This document shows positions 1 to 64,000 of a stretch of 64,000 bases of DNA, one piece after another. The stretch lies in the NCBI GenBank assembly GCA_028869255.1, contig CP110972.1, positions 1,555,001 through 1,619,000 of the forward strand, read 5' to 3'. A model generated the notes under the pieces. That model was given only the letters and a program-made list of their open reading frames with translations. It had not been told where the DNA came from and ran no database searches. Source of the stretch: Pseudomonas poae (GTDB taxonomy: Bacteria; Pseudomonadota; Gammaproteobacteria; Pseudomonadales; Pseudomonadaceae). Numbering within the stretch: the first letter of the stretch is position 1; every line of letters begins with the position of its first letter. A program made the translations under genes and the position numbers.

Positions 1-1029
1 GGCGATCTGCCGGTCGGCACTTGCCGTGCCCTGCAGCGCGGCGACCGGCACGGTAAGGGCGCCCTTGGCTTCACCGGCGACAAAAAACACCTGGGTGGTC
101 ATTTCGGCCATCAGCGTGTTGTCGCTGTTGTCCACATCCAGCAGCACCGTGTACAGCACCACGCGGCCGCTGCCACTTTTACTCGAGCTGTTGGGGCTGC
201 CACTGCCCTGGGTTTCATTCAGGGGCTTGGGCGGGATCGGCAGGATCTGCCGCACGGTGCTGGACCAACGCCGGCTACCGCCGCTGAGGGTGGTGAAATA
301 GGCGGTCATGCCGGGTTTGACGTGGCCGATGTCGGCTTCGGAGACTTCGGCCCACACGGTCATTGGCGACAATTTGGCGATGCGCAGGATCAACGGCGTC
401 TGCTGTTGCGCGTTGAGGGTCTGGCCGACGCGTGCGTCTACCGCGACCACGGTGCCGGTCATCGGCGCATAGATGCGCGTATAGCCCAACTCCGCTTCAT
501 CGCTGCGCAGGCTGGCCTGGGCCTGGCGGATCTGCGCCTGGAACATATCCACCCGGGCCTGGGTGGCGCTCAGTTCGGCCTTGGCGGTTTGCACGTCTTC
601 TTCACGGGTGGCGTTACCGGCCACCAGGCGCTGCTGGCGCTGGTATTTCTGGCGTGCCAGTTCGTGCTGGGCCTTCTGCTCCTGCAGTTGGGCCTTGAGG
701 TTTTCGATGGCATAGCGGCTGGCGTCGAGCTTGGCCTTTTGCGTGGAAGGGTCGATTTCCACCAGCAGTTGGCCTTCCTGAACCTTGTCCCCGGCCTCGA
801 CGTGAATCTTGCGGATCTGCCCGGAGGCCTGCGCGCCTACGTCGACATAGCGCCGCGGTTGCAGGGTGCCGAGGGCCGTGACGCTGTTTTCGATATTGCC
901 CCGGGTGACGGTGACAGTGGCCAGGGCGTCACGCCCCGGCGGCAGCACCTGCCAGGCGGCGACGGCGATGATAGGTAGCAGGCACGCGATAACGAGCAAG
1001 GCGCGTCGGGCAGGGCGAGGGCGTTTCAT
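1..1029 (-). CDS. pvdR: PvdR-like periplasmic adaptor of pyoverdine efflux pump (partial, 3' end outside window)
   Basis: Membrane-fusion (HlyD/MacA-type) subunit of a tripartite MacAB-like exporter. In Pseudomonas, PvdR works with PvdT and OpmQ to secrete or recycle pyoverdine. The reading frame is open from ATG at 1029 to the window edge (343 codons; the family is about 390). It begins with basic residues and one membrane anchor (about residues 10-28), then the lipoyl/barrel segment with VDVGAQASGQI near residue 62, a long coiled-coil hairpin, and a second lipoyl half (YTRIYAPMTGTVV). The name comes from MacA-like features plus position: divergent from fpvI and pvdA, with an exact PvdS box upstream. 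pvdT and opmQ should follow beyond base 1. Confidence 0.85.
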   Translation of the reverse strand, partial: MKRPRPARRALLVIACLLPIIAVAAWQVLPPGRDALATVTVTRGNIENSVTALGTLQPRRYVDVGAQASGQIRKIHVEAGDKVQEGQLLVEIDPSTQKAKLDASRYAIENLKAQLQEQKAQHELARQKYQRQQRLVAGNATREEDVQTAKAELSATQARVDMFQAQIRQAQASLRSDEAELGYTRIYAPMTGTVVAVDARVGQTLNAQQQTPLILRIAKLSPMTVWAEVSEADIGHVKPGMTAYFTTLSGGSRRWSSTVRQILPIPPKPLNETQGSGSPNSSSKSGSGRVVLYTVLLDVDNSDNTLMAEMTTQVFFVAGEAKGALTVPVAALQGTASADRQIA

Positions 1030-1084
1030 GCTTTGGTTCCAGCCAGGAAAGTTCGGACCGCAGTTGCGGGGAGCTGTCAGTTAA

Positions 1085-1108
1085 ACGAGAGAATTGCCCG
1101 GAGATTTA
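1085..1108 (-). promoter_or_regulatory. PvdS iron-starvation (IS) box for pvdR
   Basis: Read on the minus strand the sequence is TAAAT, 16 bases, CGT, which matches the TAAAT-N16/17-CGT consensus recognised by the extracytoplasmic sigma factor PvdS. It sits 56 bases before the pvdR start codon, so it fits a promoter for the pvdR operon. Confidence 0.75.
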
Positions 1109-1179
1109 GGCTGTTACACAAGCGGTTACAGGTCCCTTGAAGAAAAAATATCGTCCGTTGATGCAAGTCTGCTTTAAAA

Positions 1180-1198
1180 GTAGATGAGAATTACTATA
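1180..1198 (+). promoter_or_regulatory. Candidate Fur box upstream of fpvI
   Basis: The core ATGAGAATTACTAT (1184-1197) matches 11 of 14 bases of the inner part of the Fur 19-mer. The site lies about 90 bases before the fpvI ATG. Iron-dependent repression of fpvI by Fur is established in P. aeruginosa, so the site is plausible, but the match is imperfect. Confidence 0.55.
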
Positions 1199-1284
1199 AA
1201 TTGCACACACCCAAACTGCCATTACTGAATACGTTGTCTATTTGCACTCAAGGACCTAATGCCGCCACCCGGCGGTCGGGAGTC

Positions 1285-61549: not shown

Positions 61550-61569
61550 GCGTTTCGCAGTTTCGGTAC

Positions 61570-61603
61570 AAACAAGGGGCCTCTAGGGGCCCCTTTGTTT
61601 TTA
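61570..61603 (+). terminator. Terminator after clpX
   Basis: AACAAGGGGCC ... GGGGCCCCTTTGTT stem with TCTA loop and a T run, 21 bases after the full-length clpX stop. Confidence 0.85.
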
Positions 61604-61639
61604 TGAAGATTTTTACTGCGTGTAAGTACGGGCATTGAG

Positions 61640-61668
61640 CTTGTTTTTTTTACACGCAGCCCCCATCT
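61640..61668 (+). promoter_or_regulatory. Heat-shock (sigma-32) promoter of lon
   Basis: CTTGTTT (61640-61646), 14 bases, then CCCCATCT (61661-61668). It matches CTTGAAA-N11-16-CCCCATNT at the CTTG and at every fixed base of the -10 element. The lon ATG is 42 bases downstream. Confidence 0.7.
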
Positions 61669-61709
61669 TGGCTTCAAGCTTACTTTTCAATTGTCATAGA
61701 GGCGAAATC

Positions 61710-64000
61710 ATGAAGACAACCATCGAATTGCCTCTCCTGCCGTTGCGTGATGTCGTCGTCTATCCGCACATGGTTATCCCGCTGTTCGTGGGGCGCGAGA
61801 AGTCTATCGAAGCCCTCGAGGCCGCGATGACGGGCGACAAGCAGATCCTGCTGTTGGCCCAGAGAAACCCGGCTGATGATGATCCAGGCGAAGATGCCCT
61901 GTATCGCGTCGGTACCGTTGCCACCGTTCTGCAATTGCTCAAGCTGCCCGATGGCACCGTCAAGGTGCTGGTGGAAGGCGAGCAGCGCGGCGCGGTTGAG
62001 CGCTTTATGGAGGTGGACGGCCACCTGCGCGCCGAAGTGGCGCTGATCGACGAAGCCGAAGCCCCTGAGCGCGAGTCCGAAGTTTTTGTACGCAGCCTGC
62101 TCTCGCAGTTCGAGCAGTATGTGCAGTTGGGCAAGAAAGTCCCGGCTGAAGTCCTGTCTTCGCTCAACAGTATTGATGAGCCGAGCCGCCTGGTCGACAC
62201 CATGGCCGCGCACATGGCGCTGAAAATAGAGCAGAAGCAGGACATTCTCGAAATCATCGACCTGCCAACCCGTGTTGAACACGTGCTGGCGTTGCTGGAT
62301 GCCGAGATCGACCTGCTGCAGGTTGAGAAGCGCATTCGTGGTCGCGTGAAGAAACAAATGGAGCGCAGCCAGCGCGAGTACTACCTGAATGAGCAGATGA
62401 AGGCTATTCAGAAGGAGCTCGGCGACAGCGAGGAAGGCCACAACGAGATCGAAGAGCTGAAGAAGCGCATCGATGCCGCCGGCCTGCCGAAAGACGCCCT
62501 GACCAAAGCCAATGCCGAGCTGAACAAGCTCAAGCAAATGTCGCCGATGTCGGCCGAAGCCACCGTGGTTCGTTCCTACATCGACTGGCTGGTGCAAGTG
62601 CCGTGGAAGGCCCAGACTAAAGTGCGTCTGGACCTGGCGCGTGCTGAAGACATCCTGGATGCCGACCACTACGGCCTCGAAGAAGTCAAAGAACGCATCC
62701 TCGAATACCTCGCCGTGCAAAAGCGCGTGAAGAAGATTCGTGGCCCGGTGTTGTGCCTGGTCGGTCCGCCTGGTGTGGGTAAAACCTCCCTGGCCGAGTC
62801 TATCGCCAATGCCACCAACCGTAAATTCGTGCGCATGGCCCTCGGCGGTGTGCGTGATGAAGCGGAAATTCGTGGTCATCGCCGGACTTACATCGGTTCG
62901 ATGCCAGGAAGATTGATTCAAAAGATGACAAAGGTAGGTGTGCGCAACCCGCTGTTCCTGCTCGATGAAATCGACAAAATGGGCAGCGATATGCGCGGCG
63001 ATCCAGCCTCGGCGTTGCTCGAAGTGCTCGACCCCGAGCAGAACCACAATTTCAACGACCATTACCTGGAAGTCGACTACGACCTGTCCGACGTAATGTT
63101 CCTGTGCACCTCCAACTCGATGAACATCCCGCCCGCCTTGCTGGACCGGATGGAGGTGATTCGTCTGCCGGGTTACACCGAAGACGAGAAGATCAACATT
63201 GCCGTCAAATACCTCGCGCCCAAGCAGATTTCGGCTAACGGCCTGAAGAAAGGCGAGATCGAATTCGAGGTCGAAGCGATCCGCGACATCGTTCGTTACT
63301 ACACCCGCGAGGCTGGTGTACGGGGCCTTGAGCGCCAGATCGCGAAGATTTGCCGCAAGGCGGTCAAGGAACATGCGCTGGAAAAACGCTTCTCGGTGAA
63401 GGTGGTTGCCGACTCCCTGGAACACTTCCTGGGCGTGAAGAAATTCCGTTATGGTCTGGCTGAGCAGCAGGACCAGGTAGGGCAGGTGACGGGGCTGGCG
63501 TGGACCCAGGTGGGCGGCGAATTGCTGACCATCGAGGCTGCGGTCATCCCTGGCAAAGGCCAGTTGATCAAGACCGGTTCTTTGGGTGACGTGATGGTGG
63601 AATCCATCACTGCCGCGCAGACCGTGGTGCGCAGCCGCGCCAAGAGCCTGGGGATCCCCCTGGACTTCCACGAGAAGCACGACACTCACATCCACATGCC
63701 GGAAGGGGCCACCCCGAAAGACGGCCCTAGCGCAGGCGTAGGCATGTGCACGGCCCTGGTTTCGGCACTGACCGGCATACCGGTGCGTGCCGATGTCGCA
63801 ATGACCGGGGAAATTACCCTGCGTGGTCAGGTATTGGCCATCGGTGGTTTGAAAGAGAAATTGCTGGCCGCACACCGGGGGGGTATCAAGACGGTGATCA
63901 TTCCTGAAGAGAATGTTCGCGACTTGAAGGAAATTCCCGACAACATTAAGCAGGATCTTCAGATTAAACCGGTTAAATGGATTGACGAGGTCCTGCAAAT
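61710..64000 (+). CDS. lon: ATP-dependent Lon protease (partial, 3' end outside window)
   Basis: Cytoplasmic AAA+ serine protease that degrades damaged and regulatory proteins. The frame is open from ATG 61710 to the window end (763 codons of about 798). Features are the LON N-domain (LPLRDVVVYPHMVIPLFVGR), a coiled-coil region near residues 190-260, Walker A GPPGVGKT at 352-359, Walker B in LFLLDEIDKMG, and the proteolytic Ser674 in KDGPSAGVGM with the following catalytic lysine in GGLKEKLLAAHRGG. No frame break was found in this gene. A heat-shock promoter lies upstream. Confidence 0.97.
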   Translation, partial: MKTTIELPLLPLRDVVVYPHMVIPLFVGREKSIEALEAAMTGDKQILLLAQRNPADDDPGEDALYRVGTVATVLQLLKLPDGTVKVLVEGEQRGAVERFMEVDGHLRAEVALIDEAEAPERESEVFVRSLLSQFEQYVQLGKKVPAEVLSSLNSIDEPSRLVDTMAAHMALKIEQKQDILEIIDLPTRVEHVLALLDAEIDLLQVEKRIRGRVKKQMERSQREYYLNEQMKAIQKELGDSEEGHNEIEELKKRIDAAGLPKDALTKANAELNKLKQMSPMSAEATVVRSYIDWLVQVPWKAQTKVRLDLARAEDILDADHYGLEEVKERILEYLAVQKRVKKIRGPVLCLVGPPGVGKTSLAESIANATNRKFVRMALGGVRDEAEIRGHRRTYIGSMPGRLIQKMTKVGVRNPLFLLDEIDKMGSDMRGDPASALLEVLDPEQNHNFNDHYLEVDYDLSDVMFLCTSNSMNIPPALLDRMEVIRLPGYTEDEKINIAVKYLAPKQISANGLKKGEIEFEVEAIRDIVRYYTREAGVRGLERQIAKICRKAVKEHALEKRFSVKVVADSLEHFLGVKKFRYGLAEQQDQVGQVTGLAWTQVGGELLTIEAAVIPGKGQLIKTGSLGDVMVESITAAQTVVRSRAKSLGIPLDFHEKHDTHIHMPEGATPKDGPSAGVGMCTALVSALTGIPVRADVAMTGEITLRGQVLAIGGLKEKLLAAHRGGIKTVIIPEENVRDLKEIPDNIKQDLQIKPVKWIDEVLQ

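What the first reader, a model, noticed from the sequence alone, without database searches (positions are those of the whole stretch)
1..64000. Pervasive single-base indels in otherwise intact genes
At least nine genes have one indel each (near 4245, 12388, 34106, 41015, 48309, 51286, 53744, 58231 and 61432). Most are in runs of 2-6 identical bases and are deletions, and every repaired gene is a clean multiple of three with normal family length. Essential-type genes (tig, clpX) are hit equally. This pattern fits homopolymer error of the sequencing method more than pseudogenisation, and gene counts from this assembly should be read with that in mind.
Basis: partly seen in the sequence, partly recalled or inferred. 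Interest (0 to 1): 0.7.

Follow-up and report, generated by a model that had tools for sequence, protein, structure and literature searches.

The report
Sequencing errors that break genes
Many genes in this Pseudomonas genome look broken by single-letter slips, but even genes no bacterium can live without are broken, so the slips are almost certainly sequencing errors in the assembly rather than biology.

Summary
The window is bases 1,555,001-1,619,000 of a one-contig, 6.8 Mb Pseudomonas genome (fluorescens group). All nine sites differ by one base from every relative aligned there; eight lie in genes whose intact copies exist in relatives. The site near 53744 is a real difference but lies in no recognisable gene. 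Trigger factor carries a second lesion, an in-frame stop. In five regions compared with two relatives, 42 isolated one-base indels are private to this assembly, 26 of them inside gene models, against 3 and 7 private to the two relatives. Of 231 genes intact in both relatives, 19 are broken here; the mirror controls give 2 of 235 and 3 of 235. The broken set includes rpoB, rpoC and rplA, which a living cell cannot lack. Events per run rise about a thousandfold from runs of 1 to runs of 6, but 8 of 42 fall on unrepeated bases, so 'homopolymer error' is most of the story, not all. Simple scaling gives about 600 coding frameshifts genome-wide. Not biology; low interest.

The parts
3251..4510 (+).
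   Evidence: Intact in G361 (420 aa); 4 of 4 aligned relatives differ from the window
11818..12712 (+). Double GNAT acetyltransferase; frame broken by one one-base indel near 12388
   Evidence: Intact in G361 (297 aa); 3 of 3 aligned relatives
33702..34522 (-). NAD-dependent epimerase/dehydratase-like gene; frame broken by one one-base indel near 34106
   Evidence: Intact in G361 (274 aa); 4 of 4 aligned relatives
40042..41519 (-). GltD-like NAD(P)-binding oxidoreductase beside a dihydroorotate-dehydrogenase-like gene; broken by one one-base indel near 41015
   Evidence: Intact in G361 (492 aa); 4 of 4 aligned relatives; named from the window's own larger piece
47253..48742 (-). Efflux outer-membrane channel gene (NodT family); broken by one one-base indel near 48309
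   Evidence: Intact in G361 (496 aa); 3 of 3 aligned relatives. Not mended
49810..53060 (-). RND efflux permease gene (AcrB/AcrD/AcrF family); broken by one one-base indel near 51286
   Evidence: Intact in G361 (1083 aa); 2 of 2 aligned relatives. Not mended
53740..53750 (.).
   Evidence: 3 of 3 aligned relatives differ; no long shared reading frame across it in G361, G017 or L006; Pfam gives nothing at E 1e-5 for the window ORFs 53246-53656, 53641-54075 and 54024-54686
58055..59427 (+). tig, trigger factor; one one-base indel near 58231 plus a separate in-frame amber stop near the 3' end
   Evidence: Intact in G361 (457 aa) and G017 (455 aa); TIGR00115
60234..61549 (+). clpX; one one-base indel near 61432, about nine tenths of the way along
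   Evidence: Intact in G361 (438 aa) and G017 (438 aa); 2 of 2 relatives aligned; TIGR00382. It escapes the 90% rule, so that count is a lower bound
59519..60154 (+). clpP, intact between the two broken neighbours
   Evidence: Pfam Clp protease; no gap to G361
61635..64000 (+). lon, open to the window end
   Evidence: Pfam Lon domains; no gap to G361

Best explanation
The indels are residual consensus errors of an under-polished, probably long-read, assembly; the living strain most likely has intact genes. The basecaller or consensus step miscounts identical neighbouring bases, mostly losing one, and occasionally drops or adds a base elsewhere, often at the edge of a run. Shown: the differences are private to this assembly, one base long, found in all five regions sampled, run-length dependent, and hit indispensable genes. 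Inferred: that raw reads would not support them, and the type of platform.
For: 1) 42 of 42 isolated private indels of 1-2 nt are exactly 1 nt; 31 deletions, 11 insertions. 2) 26 are in gene models, against 3 private to G361 and 7 to G017; scaled by private substitutions (4,366, 5,036 and 20,273), Fisher p = 1.7e-6 and 3.5e-14. 3) 19 of 231 genes intact in both relatives are broken here; controls 2 of 235 and 3 of 235, and 19 of 19 contain a private one-base indel. 4) The 19 include rpoB, rpoC, rplA (L1), a pantothenate kinase, serC and mutL; the rpoB domain family PF04565 has one match in this genome, in an open frame of 604 aa against 1363 aa in both relatives. rplB (L2) has an in-frame stop near its start. 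5) Events per 1000 runs: 0.039, 0.116, 0.558, 1.19, 11.1 and 42.4 for runs of 1 to 6. 6) The broken share does not differ between regions, p = 0.55. 7) Passages of PMC8011154 report 151-5298 pseudogenes after Racon-Medaka polishing of R9.4 nanopore assemblies; my extrapolation of about 615 coding frameshifts (402-852) lies in that range.
Against: No reads were available. 8 of 42 events (5 of 26 coding) are at unrepeated bases, so run miscounting is not the only process. Outside gene models private indels are also more numerous here than in G361 (16 against 6); real evolutionary indels there cannot be told from errors one by one, and the coding/non-coding split of the two does not differ significantly (Fisher p = 0.15). 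mutL is among the broken genes, which a mutator strain would also show. One region, the division cluster, had 0 of 21 genes broken.
Confidence: 0.97

Rival explanations
1. The strain is a mismatch-repair mutator (mutL broken) that has really collected one-base slips in runs.
For: mutL is split in this assembly, at a run of A; events favour runs.
Against: rpoB, rpoC and rplA are broken too, which a living cell cannot carry. Private substitutions are not raised: 4,366 here against 5,036 in G361. That last test excludes a long-lasting mutator only; a recent one adding a few dozen transitions in the 279 kb compared would not show.
Confidence: 0.01
2. Real pseudogenisation (genome decay) in the lineage.
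For: Many genes are interrupted.
Against: Genes under the strongest constraint are hit too, and no region stands out. 19 of 19 broken genes contain a private one-base indel, without the mix of larger deletions that decay gives. In-frame stops are not in excess: 5 in 91,040 codons here under G361 models, against 13 in 91,728 in G361 under this genome's models and 7 in 83,841 in G361 under G017 models (sums over the five regions).
Confidence: 0.01
3. Real frameshifts and ambers rescued by slippage, programmed frameshifting or a suppressor tRNA.
For: It would allow broken essential genes; translational correction of indels and transcriptional slippage at runs are topics of papers listed (titles and abstract starts only).
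Against: 8 of 42 events are at unrepeated bases, where slippage has no footing. No relative aligned at the nine window sites shares them. The amber stops in nameable genes share one sequence context rather than falling on glutamine codons at large, though with three cases this is thin.
Confidence: 0.01

Closest known systems
Residual homopolymer indel errors of nanopore or other long-read assemblies (Homopolish, PMC8011154, passages read)
   Same: One-base indels, enriched in runs, many false pseudogenes, genes intact in relatives
   Different: Nothing tested differs in kind; the platform of this assembly is unknown, and about a fifth of events (8 of 42) are at unrepeated bases
Base-modification-linked nanopore errors (PMC10687267 and PMC6591954, passages read)
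   Same: Substitutions sharing a short context, which contains the Dcm motif treated in PMC6591954
   Different: Only 2 of 8 aligned copies of the context are changed; changes at CCWGG sites as a whole are not in excess over G361; the link is a guess
Mutator pseudogenes from lost mismatch repair
   Same: Run-dependent one-base indels; mutL split
   Different: Indispensable genes are hit; no substitution excess

Membership tests
Consensus indel error of an under-polished assembly | Differences are private to the assembly | tested here: met
   42 private indels; 9 of 9 window sites against every aligned relative
Consensus indel error of an under-polished assembly | Rate rises with homopolymer length | tested here: met
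   0.039 to 42.4 events per 1000 runs from run 1 to run 6; runs of 7 had 0 events in 34
Consensus indel error of an under-polished assembly | Blind to gene function, indispensable genes included | tested here: met
   rpoB, rpoC, rplA broken; no difference between regions, p = 0.55
Consensus indel error of an under-polished assembly | Genome-wide | tested here: met
   Private indels in 5 of 5 sampled regions, broken genes in 4 of 5; the division cluster had 0 of 21 broken
Consensus indel error of an under-polished assembly | Not supported by accurate reads | not testable with these tools
   No reads held
Mutator or decaying genome | Excess of private substitutions | tested here: not met
   4,366 private substitutions here, 5,036 in G361; insensitive to a very recent mutator
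Mutator or decaying genome | Indispensable genes spared | tested here: not met
Programmed frameshifting or slippage | Site conserved in relatives | tested here: not met
   No aligned relative shares any of the nine window indels
Modification-linked basecalling error | A motif is consistently miscalled | tested here: inconclusive
   2 of 8 aligned copies of the context changed, plus one more found genome-wide; 25 changed-form copies genome-wide against 14, 13, 15 and 19 in four relatives, while unchanged copies are as many here (117) as in G361 (119)

The most novel reading that the evidence does not exclude
The lesions are real and the strain reads through hundreds of one-base frameshifts and some amber stops, even in rpoB, rpoC and rplB, by a genome-wide recoding or slippage tolerance that I know of in no free-living bacterium (recalled, not searched beyond).
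Probability: 0.005. Interest if true: 0.95.

Novelty: not a real feature. Interest (0 to 1): 0.08.

Why it matters
It matters as a warning. About 8% of the testable conserved genes are falsely broken in this assembly (19 of 231). Gene counts, pseudogene counts, core-gene sets and claims of gene loss drawn from it would be wrong, although its listed completeness is 99.97%, so a completeness score does not reveal the problem.

Tried and rejected
First gene models by GC bias alone put tig on the wrong strand; replaced by a codon-usage model (on). Pairwise comparison with G017 alone gave uncertain gap placement at 88% identity; replaced by the three-way comparison. A context scan of private substitutions gave no convincing motif: the strongest context (CGATC and its complement, 26 here against 5 in G361) had p = 1.9e-5 among 1,448 contexts that were already preselected, borderline at best, and was not followed up. 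Changes at CCWGG sites were not in excess over G361, and the specific change behind the amber stops, counted at CCAGG on both strands, was 5 here and 4 in G361.

In-frame stops as a measure of error were rejected: the raw tally here (5 of 91,040 codons under G361 models; 13 of 108,088 under G017 models) is no higher than in the reverse controls for G361 (13 of 91,728 under this genome's models; 7 of 83,841 under G017 models) (sums over the five regions). I rely on named genes only. Of the five stops against G361 models, three were set aside: two fall in one 651-aa model whose reality I doubt, and one in a 332-aa model that aligns to the window over about a quarter of its length; neither model was searched against families.

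Of the changed-form 8-base word I examined all 25 copies here, 12 of 14 in G361 and 7 of 13 in G017. Five of the 25 gave identical flank values and look like a repeated locus (my reading). Three interrupt a frame that is open in a relative (tig, rplB, an AlgX-like gene); two others with open frames on both sides have a copy in G361 or G017 that looks alike, so they are probably natural.

Rows dropped before the private-indel count: clusters with several gaps or a net change over 2 nt, 21 indels with no G017 alignment and 20 ambiguous ones. The run-length background counts runs in all G361 stretches held, not only the aligned part, and an event's run length is that of the longer sequence. The phage search (window 1-25000 only) found nothing. 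The genus search drew 398 genomes with one 2.1-kb query and served only to choose relatives, so a closer relative may exist.
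Full report
What the window is. It is bases 1,555,001-1,619,000 of a single-contig genome of 6,797,314 bases. By sequence it belongs to Pseudomonas, fluorescens group (group name recalled). The closest of the genomes drawn is G361 (94-96% over the larger aligned pieces of the window). The closest of the 80 named records kept for the lon gene is P. marginalis ICMP 3553 (99% protein identity in the best segment). The listed completeness is 99.97%.

The observation. Aligned to G361, G017, G289, G004 and the P. marginalis locus L006, all nine sites are one-base length differences, and every relative that aligns there (two to four per site) disagrees with the window. 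Seven are deletions and two insertions. Seven sit in runs of 3-6 bases and two at unrepeated bases. Eight are inside genes with intact copies in G361: a radical SAM protein, a double GNAT acetyltransferase, an NAD-dependent epimerase-like protein, a GltD-like oxidoreductase, an efflux outer-membrane channel, an RND efflux permease, trigger factor and ClpX. The ninth, near 53744, is a real difference but not in a recognisable gene. Trigger factor also has an in-frame amber stop, so 'one indel each' does not describe all its damage.

The wider test. I compared five regions of the genome (the window with 100 kb on either side; rpoB; the cell-division cluster; gyrA; parC) with G361 and, as outgroup, G017. 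Of 484 kb taken from this genome, about 287 kb aligned to both. Counting isolated indels of 1-2 nt and assigning each to the odd one out, 42 are private to this assembly (26 in gene models), 9 to G361 (3 in gene models) and 55 to the more distant G017 (7 in gene models). All 42 are one base long. Scaled by private substitutions (4,366, 5,036 and 20,273), the coding excess has Fisher p = 1.7e-6 against G361 and 3.5e-14 against G017. Not counted: multi-gap clusters, 21 indels without G017 alignment and 20 ambiguous ones.

At gene level, with a gene called broken when its DNA is at least 90% present but no single frame covers 90% of the protein, 19 of 231 genes intact in both relatives are broken here. 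The mirror tests give 2 of 235 for G361 and 3 of 235 for G017; the two G361 cases are ORFs lying at window genes that are themselves broken here (my reading of their coordinates). 19 of 19 contain a private one-base indel. Seven of the 19 lie wholly in the window; clpX escapes the rule because its break lies late, so 19 is a lower bound. By simple scaling about 615 coding frameshifts (402-852) are expected genome-wide.

Why it is an artefact. The broken genes include a pantothenate kinase, rplA, rpoB and rpoC within 14 kb, and elsewhere serC, motB and mutL. The rpoB domain family has one match in this genome, in an open frame of 604 aa against 1363 aa in both relatives. rplB has an in-frame stop near its start. 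A living Pseudomonas cannot lack RNA polymerase subunits (established knowledge, recalled), so the lesions cannot all be real, and nothing I measured separates the rest from these. The broken share does not differ between regions (p = 0.55 with small counts); the division cluster had 0 of 21 broken. tig and clpX by themselves would not have settled it, since many bacteria tolerate their loss (recalled).

Error profile. Events per 1000 runs are 0.039, 0.116, 0.558, 1.19, 11.1 and 42.4 for runs of 1 to 6; there were none in 34 runs of 7 and 2 for 9 runs of 8. 17 of 42 events are in runs of 5 or more, which hold about 1.3% of bases (from the counts), but 8 of 42 are at unrepeated bases. Affected bases were C 15, G 11, A 9, T 7. 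This resembles the residual error of long-read consensus described in PMC8011154 (passages). The platform itself was not established.

A possible second, small class. Two in-frame amber stops in nameable genes, tig and rplB, are substitutions in the same 8-base context. The changed form occurs 25 times in this genome against 14, 13, 15 and 19 times in four relatives. One more of these interrupts an AlgX-like gene whose frame is intact in G361, G017 and G289. Against it: only 2 of 8 aligned copies are changed in the five regions; the unchanged form is as frequent here (117) as in G361 (119); in-frame stops overall are not in excess over the controls; and the same change at the shorter core is about as common in G361 (4) as here (5). 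So the class rests on three cases, one of them in a gene that must work. Nanopore miscalls at modified motifs are described in PMC10687267 and PMC6591954 (passages); the link to this case is a guess.

Rivals. A mutator is suggested by the split mutL, but private substitutions are not raised (this excludes a long-lasting mutator only) and indispensable genes are hit. Decay would spare those genes. Rescue by slippage or suppression would have to act also at unrepeated bases. All are improbable beside ordinary consensus error.

Literature. I saw search listings, and passages of PMC10687267, PMC6591954 and PMC8011154; no paper was read whole.

Noticed in passing
window 58055-59427 (tig); own genome near 6,501,000 (rplB) and near 4,709,950 (AlgX-like gene): Three in-frame amber stops from substitutions in one shared 8-base context, in genes intact in relatives; possibly a modification-linked miscall.
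   Followed up: partly
own genome 6,480,517-6,494,288: Four conserved genes within 14 kb (pantothenate kinase, rplA, rpoB, rpoC) are each broken by a one-base indel.
   Followed up: yes
own genome 5,242,824-5,244,738: mutL is split at a run of A; most likely the same kind of error, but it would be a real mutator lesion if reads confirmed it.
   Followed up: partly
window 47253-53060: Two of three genes of a tripartite efflux operon look broken, while the membrane-fusion gene between them (48654-49889) is open; resistance predictions from this assembly would be misled.
   Followed up: partly
window 57301 and 55752: Private one-base differences outside gene models, the first in a spacer between tRNA genes.
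   Followed up: no
own genome 1,498,808-1,505,091: A 2094-aa two-module peptide-synthetase-like gene (condensation, AMP-binding, carrier domains) carries two private one-base indels.
   Followed up: no
five regions: Private substitutions at one base of the context CGATC (and its complement) number 26 here against 5 in G361; borderline after the many contexts tested.
   Followed up: no
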